Assembly: GCA_903821975.1 (NCBI GenBank) | Contig: CAIJNJ010000242.1 | Span: 1 to 34,115, forward strand | Origin: an uncultured Bacteroidota bacterium | GTDB lineage: Bacteria; Bacteroidota; Bacteroidia; Chitinophagales; Chitinophagaceae | DNA length: 34,115 bases | Reading direction: 5' to 3' | Shown here: positions 3,092 through 32,821 of the stretch, piece by piece | Layout: every line of letters begins with the position of its first letter | Numbering within the stretch: position 1 is the stretch's first letter | Translations under genes and position numbers: made by a program | The notes under the pieces: model-generated | What the model saw: the letters and a program-made list of their open reading frames with translations, nothing else | The model's database searches: none | What the model was told of the DNA's origin: nothing

Positions 3092-4363
3092 ATGTTGTCT
3101 ATACAATTATTCAGGCAGAACAAGGAACTAATACTCGCAGGCCTGAAAAAGAAGAATTTTAAGGACCTGGAACTTGTTGATAAGATCATAAGCGTAGATG
3201 AGCGCCGCCGTGCTTTGCAGGTAGAGAATGATGCACTTGCATCTGCCCAGAATACTGCTGCAAAAAGCATAGGACAGCTTATGGCCAAAGGCGATAAAGA
3301 AGGCGCCGAGTTGCTGAAAGAAAAAGTGGGCCTGCATAAAGAGCAGGCAAAAGACATAGCCCAGAAACTTAGCGACCTGGAAACCGAGCTACAGGATATG
3401 CTGGTGCGTCTTCCAAATCTCCCACATATAGCAGTGCCGGAAGGCAAAACACCGGAAGATAACGAGGTGGTACGTGAAGGCGGCAAAATACCCGACCTGA
3501 GTGCACAAAAACTACCACACTGGGAACTTACCGACAAATACGGTCTCATAAATTTTGAACTGGGCAATAAGATCACCGGCAGCGGCTTCCCTGTTTTCAT
3601 GGGACAAGGGGCTAAACTGCAACGCTCACTCATACAATACTTTCTAAACTGGAATATAGACGCGGGCTACATGGAAGTGGCGCCGCCATTCATGGTAAAC
3701 GAAGCATCGGCTTACGGCACCGGGCAACTACCCGATAAAGAAGGGCAGATGTATCACGCCACTGAAGATAATTTTTTCCTGATACCTACTGCCGAAGTGC
3801 CTGTTACCAATCTTTACCGAGATACTATAATTCAGGAATTCGAACTGCCCGTGAAAATGACCGCGTATTCACCATGCTTCCGCCGCGAGGCAGGCTCGTA
3901 TGGTAAGGATGTGCGCGGCCTGAACCGCGTACACCAGTTTGATAAAGTAGAAGTGGTGCAACTTGCTCACCCCGCTAAAAGCTATGAAGTACTCGAAAGC
4001 ATGGTGCATCATGTGGAAAAACTGATACAATCACTCGAGTTACCATACCGCATACTGCGCCTGTGTGGCGGTGATATGAGTTTTGCATCTGCCATTACCT
4101 ACGACTTTGAAGTATACAGCGCAGCGCAGGAACGCTGGCTGGAAGTGAGCTCAGTCTCCAACTTCGAGACGTTCCAGACCAACAGGATGAAGATCCGTTT
4201 TAAAGATGGTAATGGTAAAACGCAACTGGTACATTCACTAAATGGCAGTTCACTGGCATTGCCCAGGATCATTGCCTGTTTATTAGAAAATAACCAGACA
4301 CCCGAAGGAATAAAAATACCCAAGGCTTTGCAACCTTATTTTGGAAAAGAAATAATTGATTAG
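3092..4363 (+). CDS. serS: Serine--tRNA ligase
   Basis: N-terminal coiled coil; PTAEVPVTNLYRD, TAYSPCFRREAGSYGKDVRGLNRVHQFDKVE, EVSSVSNFETFQTNRMKIRF: class II SerRS motifs. Confidence 0.97.
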   Translation: MLSIQLFRQNKELILAGLKKKNFKDLELVDKIISVDERRRALQVENDALASAQNTAAKSIGQLMAKGDKEGAELLKEKVGLHKEQAKDIAQKLSDLETELQDMLVRLPNLPHIAVPEGKTPEDNEVVREGGKIPDLSAQKLPHWELTDKYGLINFELGNKITGSGFPVFMGQGAKLQRSLIQYFLNWNIDAGYMEVAPPFMVNEASAYGTGQLPDKEGQMYHATEDNFFLIPTAEVPVTNLYRDTIIQEFELPVKMTAYSPCFRREAGSYGKDVRGLNRVHQFDKVEVVQLAHPAKSYEVLESMVHHVEKLIQSLELPYRILRLCGGDMSFASAITYDFEVYSAAQERWLEVSSVSNFETFQTNRMKIRFKDGNGKTQLVHSLNGSSLALPRIIACLLENNQTPEGIKIPKALQPYFGKEIID

Positions 4364-4394
4364 CTGATTTGATGATTAGCTGATTTGATGATTG
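4358..4394 (+). repeat. Family A repeat, left arm of inverted repeat flanking the four-helix-bundle gene; contains serS stop
   Basis: gattagctgatttgatgattagctgatttgatgattg; 33/37 identical to the reverse complement of 4775..4811. Confidence 0.85.
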
Positions 4395-4410
4395 TAAGAC
4401 CCGATAACAT

Positions 4411-4785
4411 ATGAATGAGGAATTGAAAAAAGGTAACTTAATTGTTCAAATGACTTTCGATTTTGCTTTGTCGATTATTCCCTTTTGTACTGAACTGGAT
4501 GATTTAAAAAAGTGGTCATTATCAAACCAAATATTGCGTGCATCTTTGTCAATAGGAGCTAACGTAAAAGAAGCTCAGAATGCTGAAAGTAAGGCTGATT
4601 TTATACATAAAATGAAAATAGCAGCTAAAGAAGCGGACGAAGTGGAGTTCTATCTGGAAGTTTGTAACAAATCAGAAAAATTACCTGACTGCCAAACCCT
4701 GGTTGAACAAATACACTCCATTTGCAAAGTGCTTAATAAAATTATTTCAAGTTCAAAAAATAATTACATTAATTCAATTAGCTAA
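4411..4785 (+). CDS. Four-helix bundle protein, S23/IVP (23S rRNA intervening-sequence protein) family
   Basis: LSNQILRASLSIGANVKEAQNAESKADFIHKMKIAAKEADEVEFYLEV matches the pattern of this family; AT-rich relative to neighbouring genes. Confidence 0.85.
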   Translation: MNEELKKGNLIVQMTFDFALSIIPFCTELDDLKKWSLSNQILRASLSIGANVKEAQNAESKADFIHKMKIAAKEADEVEFYLEVCNKSEKLPDCQTLVEQIHSICKVLNKIISSSKNNYINSIS

Positions 4786-4811
4786 TCAGCTAATTATCAA
4801 ATCAGCTAATC
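4775..4811 (-). repeat. Family A repeat, right arm of inverted repeat; contains the four-helix-bundle stop
   Basis: caattagctaatcagctaattatcaaatcagctaatc, reverse complement of the left arm with 4 mismatches in 37. Confidence 0.85.
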
Positions 4812-4816
4812 AAACT

Positions 4817-5266
4817 ATGATCCAACGCAAACAGTCACTTTATCTTTTTATAGCTGCGCTGCTGAATGCAGGTGTATTTTATTTTGACCTGTACAAGTAT
4901 CACATTGTCACACATAGCGGGGAAACAACAACAGATACCATGGGCCAGATACGCGTGAGCGACCATTATCCGTCGTTGCTCATTGCGTTAGTTATGACGC
5001 TGTTGCCGCTGGTAACCATATTTATGTTCAGAAAACGTAAGCAGCAGATCGGTATGACTTTTGTGAGCATACTGGCGGTCATCGGTTTCGTTAGCCTGAC
5101 ACTGAAACGCATAACCGGTTTAGACACGATGAACCCGGCACCCACAAATGCCAGTTACTGGATAGGGGCTATCTTACCTGCTATATCATTCATATTTCTC
5201 CTGCTTGCTATCTTCGGCATACGCAGGGATGAGAAACTTGTAAAAAGTGTAGACAGGCTCAGGTAG
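4817..5266 (+). CDS. DUF4293-like integral membrane protein
   Basis: MIQRKQSLYLFIAALLNAGVFYF..., four hydrophobic segments. ATG at 4817 preferred; the upstream extension in the ORF track overlaps the preceding gene and repeat. Confidence 0.7.
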   Translation: MIQRKQSLYLFIAALLNAGVFYFDLYKYHIVTHSGETTTDTMGQIRVSDHYPSLLIALVMTLLPLVTIFMFRKRKQQIGMTFVSILAVIGFVSLTLKRITGLDTMNPAPTNASYWIGAILPAISFIFLLLAIFGIRRDEKLVKSVDRLR

Positions 5267-7499: not shown

Positions 7500-7740
7500 T
7501 TGGTAGCTGATAATTGAAGCGTGAAGTTAAATCAAATAGGCATTTGAGACAGGCATTTCTGGCACCGTTAAAACAACAAAATAATGCATATATTAACCTA
7601 AAGCAATTTTTTATTCCTAATAAATTGTTTTTAAAATATATTTTCACCAAATCGTATAAAAATGAATGATTTGTTGCTATTTTGGCCTCGTTTTCCTTTG
7701 TCAACTACTTTTTACTGAACACTTTAAAATAATAACTATA

Positions 7741-9315
7741 ATGAAAAGGGTATTCCTGCTTACCGCATTGATCCTGTCATTTTACGGGAAGGTTTTTTCC
7801 CAGGTCGTTGTTCCTCCTATATCCGGATATCCGGTTGTATATACAGGATGGACCCTATTAGGCGGTGCGACCGGTGCATATGCATTAGACAGTGAAATTG
7901 TGCTTACAAAACCTGCGGGGGCGCAGGCTGGCCGCGTGTATACTACTGCTGCATACAGTGTTACTGCCTGCGGAGAATTCACGGTGAACTTTGACTTCCA
8001 GATACTGGCACATACAGGAACTACTATCGCAGATGGTATTACTTTCTTTTTCCTCTCCAGCCCTGTTGGTGCTGCAGGAACGGGTATGTCATTGAATTTA
8101 CCACCAAACCCGGTAGGCTTGGTGTTAGTGATGGATACCTATGACAACAATGGCGATGGCCTGGAACCTGATGTTGCCTTATACGGCTATAATGGCACCC
8201 TCGCCGGCTATACTGAAAACTCCGCTACACAACGTTTGCTGCCTACAGGCTTGGCCACTCACCAAAACTTTGTGGATAACGGCGCATGGCACCACTGCTT
8301 TATCAGCTACAATGCCGGTGTTGTAAAAGTTTATTTTGATTACAGCACAACACCATTATTAACCGGTAACTATTCGATCACTTATACCGGACAGTTCGGG
8401 TTTAGCGGTAGTACCGGCGGATCATACAGCACACAGAGCATAAAAAATGTGTACATCCGTACTAACTCCACAAACCCTGTACTGGGGAATACAGGTCCTA
8501 TCTGCCAGGGATCGGGACTGGCTTTAAGTGATTCTACAAGCGGGGGAACCTGGAGCAGCAGTAATACAAGCGTGGCCACAGTAGGGTCAGGTACCGGAGC
8601 CGTTATAGGCACAGGAGTAGGCACTGCAACTATTACTTATTCTTACGGAACTTCATGTACGGCTACAACTGTCGTAACTGTAAACGTGCAGCCAGCAGCC
8701 ATTACAGGTACTGCAAGCGTATGCGAAGGTGCGACAACTGCACTCACAGATGCTACGTCAGGCGGCGTATGGACCAGCACTGCAACCACAGTGGCTACGG
8801 TAGGGACCGATGGTACAGTAACTGCAAGCAGCACTACAATCGGAACATCCACCATATCCTATACAATAGGCAGTTGTGCCGCAACAAAAATTGTCACGGT
8901 AAATACACAACCGGCATTTATTACAGGAAATGTACCGTTCTGCCAAACCTTTTCCATAAACTTAACTGACGCAACAACCGGGGTTACCTGGAGCAGCAGT
9001 AACACTTCTGTAGCCACCGTATCTGGAACAGGTGTGGTAACTGGTTCAGGTGTGGGTACTTCAACAATCTCATGTGGAATACTAAGTTGCTATGCAACTA
9101 CAGTAGTAACGGTAAACACGCAACCGGCAGCTATTACGGGCACTGCAAGTGTTTGCCAGGGCGCCACTACTGCGCTTACAGATGCTACATCCGGCGGCGT
9201 ATGGAGCAGCAGCACGACGGCAGTTGCTACGGTAGGCACTGATGGCACAGTAACTGCAAGCAGCACAACGACAGGTACATCTACGATCTCTTATACGATA
9301 GGGAGTTGTACGTAA
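7741..9315 (+). pseudogene. N-terminal part of a giant secreted adhesin: signal peptide, L-type-lectin-like domain, first Ig-like (BIG2-type) repeats; ends at an in-frame TAA
   Basis: MKRVFLLTALILSFYGKVFSQ signal at ATG 7741; GLVLVMDTYDNNGDGLEPDVALYGYNG lectin-like; then WSSS..VATV..G.VTG..GT..I.Y repeats. Homology continues in the same frame past the TAA at 9313..9315. Confidence 0.75.
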
Positions 9316-10437
9316 ACAAAAGTTGTTACGGTAAATACGCAGCCGGCGGCCATCACAGGGAATGTACCTTTCTGTCAGACTTTTTCTATAAACTTAACTG
9401 ACGCAACAACCGGGGTTACATGGAGCAGCAGTACAACTTCCGTAGCCACCGTATCTGGTACAGGTGTGGTAACTGGCGTGAGCGTGGGTACTTCTACGAT
9501 AACATGTGGAGTGCTAAGTTGCTTCGCGACTACAGTAGTAACCGTGAACACGCAACCGGTAGCAATTACTGGCATAGCAAGTGTATGCCAGGGCGCTACC
9601 ACTGCGCTTACAGATGCTACCGGTGGTGGTACATGGAGCAGCACTACTACTACTGTCGCTACCGTCGGAACTGATGGCACCGTAACTGCAAGCAATATCA
9701 ATGTGGGCACTTCTACGATATCATATACTATAGGTAGCTGTGTTGCTACAAAAATTGTCACAGTAAATACGCAACCTGCAGCAATCACGGGTAATGTGCC
9801 CTTCTGCCAGACTTTTTCCATAAACTTATCTGACGTTACAACCGGTGTTACGTGGAGCAGCAGTACAACTTCTGTAGCTACAGTGTCCGGAACAGGTGTG
9901 GTAACAGGCGTTGGTGTGGGTACCTCCACCATCACATGCGGGATACTAAGCTGCTATGCAACTACGGTAGTTACTGTAAACACACAACCTGTAGCTATTA
10001 CGGGTACGCCAACGTTGTGCGAGGGCGCTACAACTGCGCTTACAGACGCTACCGGCGGCGGCACATGGAGCAGCACTACTACGACTGTCGCGACTGTAGG
10101 CACAGATGGTACTGTAACGGCAAGCAATATTAATGTGGGCACGTCTACGATATCATATACTATAGGCAGTTGTGTGGCTACAAAAATAGTGACGGTAACC
10201 ACCCAACCGGCTATAATAACCGGTAATGCCCCTATTTGCCAGACCTTCACCGAAACACTATCGGATGCCACAGGTGGTGGAACATGGAGCAGTGTTACAA
10301 CTTCGGTAGCTACAATTTCATCAACCGGCCTGGTTACAGGCGGCCTTGTTGGAACATCGGTAATATCATACACAATAGGCGGGTGTGCTGCCACTGCCAT
10401 TGTAACAGTAAATATTCAACCGGCAGCTATATCCGGC
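8710..10437 (+). repeat. Higher-order tandem array: four dimeric Ig-domain units of 432 bp (219 + 213 bp)
   Basis: B-type units start at 8710, 9142, 9574, 10006; A-type units at 8929, 9361, 9793, 10225. Spacing is exactly 432 bp each time. Confidence 0.85.
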
Positions 10438-12954
10438 AGCTTATCAGTATGCCAGGGCCTGACAACCAGCCTTAGTGATGCTACCGGCAGCGGTGTATGG
10501 AGCAGTGTTAATCCCGGCACAGGCTCTGTGTCTGTAACAGGTGTTGTAACGGGTGTTACAAATGGCACAGCAACGATATCATATACTATTGGTGCCTGTG
10601 CGGCTAAAGTAGTCGTTACCGTTAATTCATTACCTTCTCCTATAACGGGTACAAAAACAGTATGCTCCGGCCTTACTACCAATTTATTTGATGGCACTGG
10701 CGGCGGTACATGGAGCAGCAGCAACTCGGCGATAGCCTCCATTGGCTCTACCGGCATTGTTACCGGCGGAGTTGTGGTTGTTACAAGCACTGCTACTATA
10801 ACTTATACCGTAGGTACAGGATGTATCAATACAACTGTGGTCACTGTTAATCCATTGCCCACAGCCATATTGGGAGCCAATAACGTATGCTTTGGTTCGT
10901 CCATTACACTAAGTGATGCGGGTCTCGGCACATGGAGCAGCCAGAACACGAGTATTGCCACTGTTGGCTCATCAACAGGTGTCGTGACTGGCACCGGAGT
11001 TGGTGTTACTACGATAACCTATGCACTGCCCACTGGCTGCATCATCACCGCACCAATGACAGTGAACCCTGTACCTGTTGCTATTACAGGTCCTGATTTA
11101 GTTTGTGTTGGTTCGACAATAACCTTAAGCGACCTGACAGGTCTTGGCACATGGAGCAGCAGTAATACAGCATGGGCAACAGTTATTGCCGGCACAGGGG
11201 TGGTAACAGGTGTAGCAGGCGGAGTGGTAAACATCAGTTATATTCTCGGCACAGGCTGTTATGCAATATACCCTGTAACCGTTGATGCACAGCTTGCTGT
11301 AATAACACCCGTAGGTGACACGACATTCTGCCCTGGCGGTTTTGTGGCCCTTACTGCGAATGTAGGAACGGGACTTACTTATCAATGGTATGTTGGCGGC
11401 GCTGCGATAGGTGGTGCAATAGCATCAAGCTATATAGCAACTACCAGTGGCAGTTACCAGGTATTCGTAACTAATGCAGCAGGTTGTTCCACACTTTCTA
11501 TACCCATGCTGGTAACTGTGGATACAGCAGTTGCTACGATCACGGCGAGCACAAGTACAACTATCTGTTCGGGCTCATCGGCAACGCTGGATGCCAATAC
11601 AGGCGGAGGACTTAGCTACCAATGGCTGCAGGATGGCGGTGCCATAGCAGGTGCTACAGCAAGTTCTTATACAACCACGCTGGCCGGTGACTATTCTATG
11701 ATCATCACCAACGCTACAGGCTGCTCTGCAACTTCGAATATCATTACGATATCCGTAAATCCTTCGCCAACAGCGAATATAGTATTATCTGGCCCGCTCA
11801 CATTCTGCCAGGGTGGAAGCGTTGTGATGACTGCCGACTATTCTGCTGACTATTCCTATCAATGGTACAATGGTGCTGGAGCGATAACAGGTGCAAATGG
11901 CGTGTCGTACACAGCTACCACAACCGGCAATTATTATGTAACGGTTTCTAATAGCTATGGTTGTAGCGCCACATCAATAGTGATGTCGGTAGTAGTGAAC
12001 CCATTGCCTAATGTAGGTATTACTGCGAGTGGCGCTACATTGTTCTGCACTGGCGGCAGTGTTACACTTAGTGCTACTGCCGGGTACAATTACCAGTGGT
12101 ATCGTGGAGGAGTGGCAATTGCAGGTGCTACTAATGCATCTTACTTAGCTACTGTCGGCGGTGGATACCGCGTGCAGGTAACAGATCCTACCACAGGATG
12201 TTTTGACGAAACACATGCAGACACTGTGGTGACTGTGGTAGGCACACCAGTTGTAGTGCCGGTAACACCTGCATCATTCTGCTGGGGTGGCAGCTCATTA
12301 CTGTCTACCAGTGTATCGGGTACAACAGGTACAATAACCTATCAATGGTATTTTAACGGAGTAGCAATAGCCGGTGCAATAGGGCCAATGTATAACGCAA
12401 CGGTGCCCGGTAATTATAGCTGCCAGATAACAATACCCGGTAGCTGCACTAATATGACGGTGGCTATACCAGTTACAGAATTCCCATTGCCTGATCCGCT
12501 GATCACTTTCGACGGTTCATGGTTCCATACAGCGCCATACTATATCGCCTACCAGTGGTACAAGGATATGGTAGCAATCCCGGGGGCTACCGGTTCGGGT
12601 ACACCATCAATGGGTGCCGGTAATTACAAGGTCGCAGTAACAGATACGAACGGTTGCCAGTCATACTCGGATATATATGTGTACACGGGCAACGTAAATA
12701 CTACAGGTGTACAGAACGTAAGTGTCAGCGATATCAAGATATACCCTAACCCGGCACAAACTGTTGTTCATGTAGAAGCCGGCATACAGGTTCGCGTTGC
12801 GATAAATGGTATAGATGGCCGTTCGGTTCTTAACGTGCAGGATGTAAAGGATATAGATATCAGCAACCTTCCGGATGGGGTGTATATGATCATGGTATAT
12901 GATACTAACGGGCAAATGCTGAAAGCAGATAAGCTCGTGAAAGCAGCTAATTGA
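9316..12954 (+). pseudogene. C-terminal part of the adhesin: further BIG2-type repeats, Ig-like YQWY repeats and T9SS type A sorting domain
   Basis: Same frame as 7741..9315. Open from 9316 (TKVVTVNTQPAAITGNVPFC...) although the track begins at 9466. C-terminus IKIYPNPAQTVVHVEAG...DISNLPDGVYMIMVYDTNGQMLKADKLVK is a typical Por-secretion tail. Confidence 0.75.
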
Positions 12955-25551: not shown

Positions 25552-25932
25552 CTAAGCCGCTTTTTTATTTGTAGTTTTCCTCTTTGCCGGCTTGGGAGCG
25601 TTCGCAATGAATGTTCTTTTCACTTTTCGCTCAAATTTCATGATTGTCATCAACTCAATACTTAGCGCTTTTTCAAGTTTGGCGATAGTTTCAAGAGTTA
25701 AATTTTCCTTCCCCTTCACAATATTATTTATATACTGTGGAGTAACGTGCATTTGCCCGGCCAGTTTTTTTTGGGTGATTTTTTTTTCGTCCAATGCTTC
25801 CAGCACTTCAAATGCAATAGCTTGTGATTTTTTCAGCCATGCTCGGTTTTCTTTCCGCCATTGAGCTTTTGCCGCCCATTCGCTGCTTTCGCCTTTGCTT
25901 AATGCGCCAAGTTTTCTTCTTATTTCAGACAT
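25552..25932 (-). CDS. XRE-family helix-turn-helix protein, putative antitoxin
   Basis: ALDEKKITQKKLAGQMHVTPQYINNIVKGKENLTLETIAKLEKALSIEL: classic HTH_XRE. Confidence 0.88.
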   Translation of the reverse strand: MSEIRRKLGALSKGESSEWAAKAQWRKENRAWLKKSQAIAFEVLEALDEKKITQKKLAGQMHVTPQYINNIVKGKENLTLETIAKLEKALSIELMTIMKFERKVKRTFIANAPKPAKRKTTNKKAA

Positions 25933-25934
25933 AA

Positions 25935-26498
25935 TTATGTAGAGATTAGATCTTCAAAATATAAAATACCGTTTTCTTTCAAATAATGTTTTACCTGCTC
26001 TAATTTGGCCAACTCCTTTTCAAGGTGCTTCCTGCCATTCATCTTCTCTGTTAGTTTTATTGCGCCACCAGTCACTATATAACTGTCATCAGCGAGCCTG
26101 ATGGCGTATAACCGTAAAAATGGCATTTTACTTTGCGGTTTAGCTTTTTTCTTCTGATATATTTTGTCATTATACTCGCGATTATCCAGCGGTTGAAAAA
26201 ACTGCCTGATGTTGGCTTTACCTTTCCATGTCCGCCCATGCCCTACTTCAAATAGCATATCTTCAAAAATTTCCGCTTCGTTCAGCACCTTAAAAACCGC
26301 CGCTCTTATTGTCATATTTTCCCAAAAATCCGTCATTAGGTCGCTAATGTGCTCCTTAAAAAATGATCTTAAATATTCCTCATCTGTCCATAGATCAAAT
26401 AGCCGGTTAAATTCATCCTTCTTTTCTTTATCATAAATAATTGTCCATAGCTGGCAATCCGCTATTTCTATATCTGTAAAGGTACGAACAATTTTCAT
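25935..26498 (-). CDS. Putative toxin-like protein paired with the HTH gene
   Basis: PFLRLYAIRLADDSYIVTGGAIKLTEKMNGRKHLEKELAKLEQVKHYLKENGI: HigB/RelE-reminiscent C-terminal segment; stop is 2 nt from the HTH start. Confidence 0.6.
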   Translation of the reverse strand: MKIVRTFTDIEIADCQLWTIIYDKEKKDEFNRLFDLWTDEEYLRSFFKEHISDLMTDFWENMTIRAAVFKVLNEAEIFEDMLFEVGHGRTWKGKANIRQFFQPLDNREYNDKIYQKKKAKPQSKMPFLRLYAIRLADDSYIVTGGAIKLTEKMNGRKHLEKELAKLEQVKHYLKENGILYFEDLIST

Positions 26499-31937: not shown

Positions 31938-32564
31938 TCATTTCAAATAATCACTTACTTTTTGCCGGATATGTTTTTTTACACTTTCCCACGTTTGCCC
32001 TTTCAGGCTCACCGGCTCCTCGCTTTCTTCGGCATCTGAGAAATAAGTTAACGCCTGCGGAATAGATATGAGTATCTGGTGATTGGGATATTTTTGGTTA
32101 TAGCTATTAATAATGTCTTCGACCAAATAATGGTTCAGTATTTCTGAAATATCCCAAAAATCTTTTTTCACACCCCGCTTCAATACTGCTGCAACCTTCA
32201 TTGCCATTATGTCCCTGATGCTGATGAGCCTAATTCCATTTTCAACTACTATAGCATCTATTAAAGAAAAATAATGGTGCTTAACAAAGTCCACTTTAAC
32301 GTCGCCTATGAAACCAAATAAACCAACCGGGTTATGCGTATTGCTGTATGTAAATTTTGAAAAATGCTTTTCCAATACCGGAACTATATCTTCTTGCCTG
32401 AAGTCAACGGTTGAAAACAGATCCAGATCGATGGAAACCCGGTGGCCATAATACAACGCAAGAGCAGTACCACCAACAAGATTAAAATCTTTTAATTCAG
32501 GAAGTTGCATCAACTCCTTTAATATATCCAGTGTCCTGGGTTCAACTGTGCTGTATTGTAACAT
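31938..32564 (-). CDS. AbiEii/AbiGii-type nucleotidyltransferase (toxin family)
   Basis: FNLVGGTALALYYGHRVSIDLDLFSTVDFRQEDI (GG..ALA, D.D motif), IRDIMAMKVAAVLKRGVKKDFWDISEILNHY. Confidence 0.88.
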   Translation of the reverse strand: MLQYSTVEPRTLDILKELMQLPELKDFNLVGGTALALYYGHRVSIDLDLFSTVDFRQEDIVPVLEKHFSKFTYSNTHNPVGLFGFIGDVKVDFVKHHYFSLIDAIVVENGIRLISIRDIMAMKVAAVLKRGVKKDFWDISEILNHYLVEDIINSYNQKYPNHQILISIPQALTYFSDAEESEEPVSLKGQTWESVKKHIRQKVSDYLK

Positions 32565-32821
32565 TTGTAATCGGTTAATTCATTATTCAAACAAGCACAG
32601 GCAAGATAAATTGTGGTAAGTGACAGCCATTTTGCATTTGTAAGTACGGACCTGATCTTGTCATCTCCATAAAATCTTCTGCAGGCCCGTATATCCGGCA
32701 CATCACCTCTTTCAAAAACACGCTCTATGATAAAAGCAGCCTTTTTATCATAGTCGAGCGTCTCGAAATTTATATCCCAAAAGATACGCTTATTCAGTTC
32801 TGGATGATTTCCGGCCTGCAT
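32519..32821 (-). CDS. Partner of the AbiEii-like gene (DUF6922-like), putative antitoxin component
   Basis: NKRIFWDINFETLDYDKKAAFIIERVFERGDVPDIRACRRFYGDDKIRSVLTNAKWLS; 46-nt overlap with the downstream nucleotidyltransferase gene. Confidence 0.7.
   Translation of the reverse strand: MQAGNHPELNKRIFWDINFETLDYDKKAAFIIERVFERGDVPDIRACRRFYGDDKIRSVLTNAKWLSLTTIYLACACLNNELTDYKCYNTAQLNPGHWIY

What the first reader, a model, noticed from the sequence alone, without database searches (positions are those of the whole stretch)
4358..4811. Four-helix-bundle gene enclosed in a 37-bp inverted repeat: an IVS-like cassette outside rRNA
A 4HB/S23-like ORF (4411..4785) is bounded by two inverted 37-bp arms (4358..4394 and 4775..4811, 33/37 complementary). 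The serS stop lies in the left arm, the ORF's own stop lies in the right arm, and the DUF4293 ATG begins 5 nt after the right arm. Established: S23/IVP proteins are encoded in 23S rRNA intervening sequences whose ends pair as a long stem. Inference: this may be a mobile or domesticated cassette of the same architecture inserted at an intergenic site, with no recognisable transposase.
Basis: partly seen in the sequence, partly recalled or inferred. Interest (0 to 1): 0.75.

Follow-up and report, generated by a model that had tools for sequence, protein, structure and literature searches.

The report
Repeat-armed four-helix-bundle cassettes inside operons
Between two ordinary housekeeping genes sits a small gene walled in by mirror-image arrays of 8-letter repeats, one copy of a widespread and apparently undescribed kind of insert that lodges inside bacterial operons (rpoB|rpoC, sdhA|sdhB, nuoA|nuoB and many more) and whose repeat pattern is matched to the small protein it encodes.

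Summary
A TIGR02436/PF05635 four-helix-bundle (4HB) gene at 4411-4785 is enclosed by 39-nt inverted arms (4356-4394, 4775-4813; 90% complementary). This is not a one-off. In the genus, 72 of 94 testable 4HB genes (40 sites, about 29 armed) have inverted 7-8-bp arrays above the 99th percentile of an ORF control; so do 67 of 79 relatives across Bacteroidota and 11 of 12 plasmid loci (Cyanobacteria, Azospirillum, Riemerella). Armed cassettes sit in sense between co-transcribed genes: rpoB|rpoC, rplJ|rplL, nuoA|nuoB, sdhA|sdhB, accB|accC, fdx|iscX, sufB|sufC. In the phylum set, 67 of 72 have both neighbours codirectional (67 sense, 1 antisense). Repeat class tracks protein subfamily (69/74 versus 1/37). 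Empty, occupied and single-array "scar" junctions occur among relatives; one protein clade occupies four unrelated sites. The protein is under purifying selection (dN/dS about 0.11). Best reading: a selfish or domesticated cassette that works like the 23S rRNA intervening sequence but lives in mRNA. Shown: architecture, niche, coupling, gain/loss. Inferred: RNase III processing, repeat binding, mobility mechanism.

The parts
3092..4363 (+). serS (upstream neighbour); its stop TAG 4361-4363 lies inside the left arm
   Evidence: TIGR00414 E 7.7e-132
4356..4394 (+). Left arm: period-8 array (GATTAGCT GATTTGAT)x2 GATT
   Evidence: the repeat finder D2, I1; 29/32 identical to the left arm at the same junction in G024
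4411..4785 (+). Four-helix-bundle protein gene, 124 aa (PF05635 / TIGR02436)
   Evidence: closest solved structure 2RLD E 4.7e-33
4775..4813 (-). Right arm: inverted period-8 array; contains the 4HB stop codon
   Evidence: 48/51 identical to G024 across the right arm and start of DUF4293, while the 4HB gene is only 238/354 identical
4817..5266 (+).
   Evidence: PF14126 E 4e-32

Best explanation
The feature is one copy of a large class of operon-dwelling cassettes: a sense-oriented 4HB (S23/IVP-family) gene between inverted arrays of degenerate 7-8-bp tandem repeats, placed between the stop codon of one operon gene and the start codon of the next. It relies on host read-through transcription. 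In the polycistronic RNA the two arrays pair into a stem of about 30 bp around the 4HB coding region. That stem is probably cut by a double-strand RNase (RNase III), which separates the upstream cistron, the 4HB message and the downstream cistron, so the insert is tolerated, as rRNA intervening sequences are. The 4HB protein is probably matched to its own repeat class and helps maintain, copy or protect the element; cassettes spread occasionally to other operon junctions and are lost, leaving a single array as a scar. Shown here: architecture, repeat-protein coupling, operon niche and orientation, occupied/empty/scar junctions, different sites for one clade, and purifying selection on the protein. 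Inferred: read-through dependence, RNase III cutting, repeat recognition by the protein, and how it moves.
For: Arms present and beyond chance. General: 72/94 in the genus, 67/79 across Bacteroidota, 11/12 plasmid loci from Cyanobacteria, Azospirillum and Riemerella. Niche: NCBIfam-verified rpoB|rpoC, rplJ|rplL, nuoA|nuoB, sdhA|sdhB, sdhC|sdhA, accB|accC, nuoL|nuoM, scoA|scoB, fdx|iscX, rfbB|rfbA, sufB|sufC, leuC|leuD. Orientation: 67/72 both neighbours codirectional, 67 sense vs 1 antisense, p 4.7e-19; genus 21/29 vs control 85/213. Coupling: RATKNGNN octamers in 69/74 of the window's subfamily vs 1/37 of others, Fisher p 1e-22; Mantel r 0.62, 0/1000 permutations. Own arm partner scores 25.8 vs 16.3 for arms of other elements of the subfamily. 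Gain/loss: clean, full and single-array scar states at fdx|iscX cluster on the tree. Movement: clade 100/96 at four unrelated sites. dN/dS median 0.11. Arms 90-94% identical to G024 while the gene is 67% with saturated dS. RNA fold z -3.5.
Against: No RNA data. The G.U versus A.C test between arms is weak (119 vs 97; 30 vs 19 elements), so selection for RNA pairing as such is not shown. The window protein is acidic (pI 5.7), unlike an obvious RNA-binding protein. No target-site duplication was seen by eye at the serS junction. In two cyanobacterial loci the 4HB gene is antisense to both neighbours. Within sites inheritance is mostly vertical, so movement is slow.
Confidence: 0.62

Rival explanations
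1. Host regulatory module: the 4HB protein binds its own arrays in the mRNA and tunes the stoichiometry or stability of the flanking cistrons (RpoB/RpoC, SdhA/SdhB and so on); kept because it is useful to the host.
For: Strong purifying selection; conserved arms; junctions between subunits of one complex; protein-repeat coupling.
Against: Presence is patchy among congeners, with clean and scar junctions; sites are functionally miscellaneous; one clade sits in four unrelated operons.
Confidence: 0.2
2. The element acts at the DNA level: the arrays are binding sites or ends for a transposition or rearrangement reaction (by the 4HB protein, or by a Y1-type or other transposase in trans), and the RNA stem is incidental.
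For: Weak sign of RNA-pair selection; Y1 transposases in 33/35 genus genomes; array-only elements resemble non-autonomous copies.
Against: Near-absolute sense orientation inside operons is not expected of a DNA-only element; no shared terminal sequence between elements of one genome; armed cassettes also persist in a genome without a Y1 hit (G017).
Confidence: 0.15
3. Ordinary short-tandem-repeat turnover: AT-rich 7-8-bp arrays grow by slippage in spacers, and 4HB genes are passive neighbours.
For: Concerted heptamer changes across units of both arms fit slippage plus template switching between arms; such repeats are known in Xanthomonas and Nostoc (PMC4692102).
Against: Arrays are rare away from 4HB genes; armed in 72/94 against about 1% of control ORFs; repeat class tracks protein subfamily; arms are more conserved than the gene between G000 and G024.
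Confidence: 0.03

Closest known systems
23S rRNA intervening sequences (IVS) with S23/IVP ORF, e.g. Coxiella burnetii (PMC4990558)
   Same: Short element, a PF05635-family ORF, terminal inverted repeats predicted to pair as a stem, sporadic distribution, no transposase; sits inside a longer host transcript.
   Different: Here it lies between protein-coding operon genes rather than in rRNA; the arms are 7-8-bp tandem arrays whose motif class follows the protein subfamily; the ORF is under strong purifying selection, whereas the Coxiella ORF is reported to be decaying; RNase III excision is shown for the IVS and untested here.
Avd of diversity-generating retroelements
   Same: Same fold family; PHROG Avd profile hits other subfamilies weakly (5e-10, 2e-8).
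   Different: No reverse transcriptase hit on the window's contig and no PHROG hit for the window protein. Avd-like genes in the genus (site 39, e.g. G000:C541) lie next to a reverse transcriptase and have no arms.
STRR / heptamer simple sequence repeats (PMC4692102, PMC2670836) and TAACTGA repeats (PMC4679880)
   Same: Degenerate 7-bp tandem arrays in spacers, near start and stop codons, sometimes as inverted pairs (70 pairs reported in Xanthomonas campestris).
   Different: No link to 4HB genes is reported there (no mention of 'four helix' or 'S23' in PMC4692102 and PMC4679880).
23S_rRNA_IVP genes noted in cas loci (PMC3936711)
   Same: Same protein family sitting between operon genes (cas6/cas4, cmr3/cmr2); cas6|4HB|cas4 seen here twice with inverted arrays.
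   Different: That work reported them as a function associated with CRISPR-Cas; here they look like operon-junction cassettes that also happen to enter cas operons.

Membership tests
PF05635 / TIGR02436 four-helix-bundle (S23/IVP) proteins | Profile score above the curated cut-off | tested here: met
   74.9 bits vs 33.8; 92.2 vs 24
rRNA intervening sequence (IVS) | Encodes an S23/IVP-family ORF | tested here: met
rRNA intervening sequence (IVS) | Terminal inverted repeats that can pair around the ORF | tested here: met
   (pairing predicted, not measured)
rRNA intervening sequence (IVS) | Located inside an rRNA gene | tested here: not met
   Between serS and DUF4293; no rRNA in the window
rRNA intervening sequence (IVS) | Excised by RNase III | not testable with these tools
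   Needs RNA end mapping or an in vitro cleavage assay
Insertion sequence / MITE | Terminal repeats shared between copies of one genome | tested here: not met
   The four armed elements of G000 have different repeat motifs
Insertion sequence / MITE | Target-site duplication | tested here: inconclusive
   None seen by eye at the serS junction against G033; not surveyed systematically
DGR accessory protein Avd | Adjacent reverse transcriptase with template/variable repeats | tested here: not met
   No RT hit on C242

The most novel reading that the evidence does not exclude
A separate, previously unrecognised class of mobile element living in messenger RNA: a 4HB protein and its own 7-8-bp repeat arrays form a co-evolving recognition pair that colonises operon junctions across several phyla, of which rRNA intervening sequences are one special case.
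Probability: 0.4. Interest if true: 0.93.

Novelty: new variant of a known kind. Interest (0 to 1): 0.82.

Why it matters
IVS/S23 proteins have no known function, and short heptamer arrays in cyanobacteria and Xanthomonas have no known partner. Linking the two gives a testable pair (protein and repeat class), shows that essential operons such as rpoB|rpoC carry tolerated inserts between their genes, and suggests that IVP genes listed as CRISPR-associated may be passengers of operons. It also predicts a large, overlooked set of processed polycistronic RNAs.

Tried and rejected
Plain RNA-stem selection: G.U versus A.C mismatches between arms only weakly biased. Resident reverse transcriptase as mobiliser: 17 of 35 genus genomes have no RT hit, among them near-complete ones with armed cassettes such as G002, G012 and G032. 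Defence-system membership: no PADLOC hit. Phage cargo: only two weak phage hits. Random pairing of arms from different genomes as a null was contaminated by recurring motifs and was replaced by ORF and shuffle controls. No target-site duplication found by eye. Literature: no paper in the held library was found to link 4HB/IVP genes to such arrays; subscription journals are not covered.

Full report
1. Observation. The repeat finder gives inverted arms at 4356-4394 and 4775-4813 (39 nt, 90% complementary). The ORF between them is a PF05635/TIGR02436 four-helix-bundle (4HB) protein, with solved relatives 2RLD (E 4.7e-33) and 2GSC (E 0.0014). serS ends inside the left arm, the 4HB gene ends inside the right arm, and DUF4293 starts at 4817. 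The predicted RNA fold pairs the arms into a long stem, z -3.5 against dinucleotide shuffles.

2. It is one of many. The assembly has six PF05635 hits. Four of them are flanked by inverted period-8 arrays, each with a different octamer, and two are not. In 35 genomes of the genus every genome has at least one PF05635 hit. Of 94 4HB genes with both flanks available, 72 exceed the 99th percentile of an ORF control (n = 247) and 76 exceed the best of 50 dinucleotide shuffles of their own flanks. They fall into 40 sites, about 29 of them armed. Across the phylum, 67 of 79 named loci of the window's subfamily are armed. Thirty top-scoring hits of another subfamily give 16 armed, so arms are common but not universal. 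On plasmids, 11 of 12 inspected loci from Cyanobacteria, Azospirillum and Riemerella are armed. Such arrays are otherwise rare: four in 400 kb of G002, one of which is an arm of a 4HB element.

3. Niche. NCBIfam identifies the neighbours as rpoB|rpoC, rplJ|rplL, nuoA|nuoB, sdhA|sdhB and accB|accC; nuoL|nuoM, scoA|scoB, fdx|iscX, rfbB|rfbA and sdhC|sdhA; sufB|sufC, leuC|leuD and scoA|scoB in other families. Further pairs (emrA|emrB, paaB|paaC, hddA|hddC, hmgA|hppD) were named by eye, with only hppD confirmed. Both neighbours are codirectional with the 4HB gene in 67 of 72 phylum loci, 67 sense against 1 antisense (p 4.7e-19). In the genus the figure is 21 of 29 sites against 85 of 213 control triples, with a simple ORF caller that misses some neighbours. 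The loci are not all independent: some share a junction by descent. In two cyanobacterial plasmid loci the 4HB gene is antisense to both neighbours.

4. Protein and repeat belong together. In 111 armed elements, the window's subfamily uses period 8 in 72 of 74 and the pattern RATKNGNN in 69 of 74; other subfamilies use period 7 in 26 of 37 and RATKNG in 1 of 37 (Fisher p 1e-22). Protein identity and array similarity correlate (Mantel r 0.62, 0 of 1000 permutations). Within the subfamily an arm matches its own partner (mean 25.8) better than partners of other elements (16.3). At rpoB|rpoC the heptamer differs between two protein clades in most units of both arms, so the arms change in concert. 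Between the window and G024 the arms are 90-94% identical while the 4HB gene is 67% identical with saturated synonymous sites. Shared descent of the whole cassette explains part of this coupling; rapid turnover of arrays together with a phylum-wide conserved core argues for constraint.

5. Gain, loss and movement. At serS|DUF4293 the closest sampled relative by serS identity (91%) has a 5-bp spacer and others 7-36 bp; six relatives clearly, and a seventh marginally, carry non-coding inverted-array inserts with other motifs. At fdx|iscX three genomes carry the full cassette, about eight a single array of the same motif, and about seventeen neither; full and scar states cluster on a serS+DUF4293 tree. 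One protein clade (support 100/96) occupies four sites whose neighbours share nothing. Within most sites inheritance is vertical. The protein evolves under purifying selection, median dN/dS 0.11 in 45 pairs, although a few copies carry in-frame stops.

6. Armless 4HB genes. They are mostly one clade (support 100/99); 7 of 14 loci scanned have a tRNA-Leu gene close upstream, with different Leu anticodons. Site 39 lies next to a reverse transcriptase in G000 and G019 and its locus L006 carries 143-nt repeats, as a diversity-generating retroelement would.

7. Mechanism. The most economical model is an mRNA counterpart of the rRNA intervening sequence. In Coxiella the IVS termini form a 28-bp stem and RNase III cuts it out (PMC4990558). 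A cassette between cistrons could be cut out or cut apart at the same low cost. Sense orientation fits a gene that needs host read-through transcription. Repeat-protein coupling suggests that the protein recognises its own arms. These three steps are inferences. Against them: the wobble test is weak, the window protein is acidic, and half the genus genomes have no reverse transcriptase hit, so reverse transcription by a resident RT is not required for persistence.

8. Relation to what is known. IVS elements, Avd proteins, heptamer repeats (PMC4692102, PMC4679880, PMC2670836) and IVP genes in cas loci (PMC3936711) are each known; 23S_rRNA_IVP ORFs also occur in rRNA insertions of CPR bacteria (PMC11270868). 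No paper found in the held library joins them. The element fails the defining location of an IVS, so it is not filed as one; it is described as working like one. I rate it a new variant of a known kind, with a 0.4 chance that it deserves its own class.

Noticed in passing
L064, L065, L067, L068, L089, L093, L104: Armless 4HB genes of one clade lie close behind tRNA-Leu genes with different Leu anticodons, a second RNA-linked niche for this protein family.
   Followed up: partly
L006 (G000:C541) and G019:C163, G019:C106, G033:C467: Weak PF05635 hits next to reverse transcriptase hits, in L006 with 143-nt repeats: probably diversity-generating retroelements with Avd.
   Followed up: partly
L008:1501-1810 and L009:140-290: Non-coding stretches of the same genome made of several GATTAGCT-type arrays in both orientations, without a 4HB gene.
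   Followed up: no
L290 (Pseudanabaena) and L298 (Anabaena sp. 90): Repeat-armed 4HB genes between cas6 and cas4 in two different cyanobacterial plasmids.
   Followed up: partly
L289 (Nostoc edaphicum) and L291 (Calothrix): Repeat-armed 4HB genes antisense to both neighbours (ribonucleotide reductase genes; secretion ABC genes), exceptions to the sense rule.
   Followed up: no
window 25552-26498 (-): By eye, a helix-turn-helix protein and a short companion gene that look like a toxin-antitoxin-type pair.
   Followed up: no
window 31938-32821 (-): By eye, a nucleotidyltransferase-like gene with a short upstream partner, resembling an AbiEii-type pair.
   Followed up: no
window 7666-12954 (+): Long repetitive surface-type protein read in two open frames (7666-9315 and 9466-12954), perhaps one gene with a frameshift or assembly error.
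   Followed up: no
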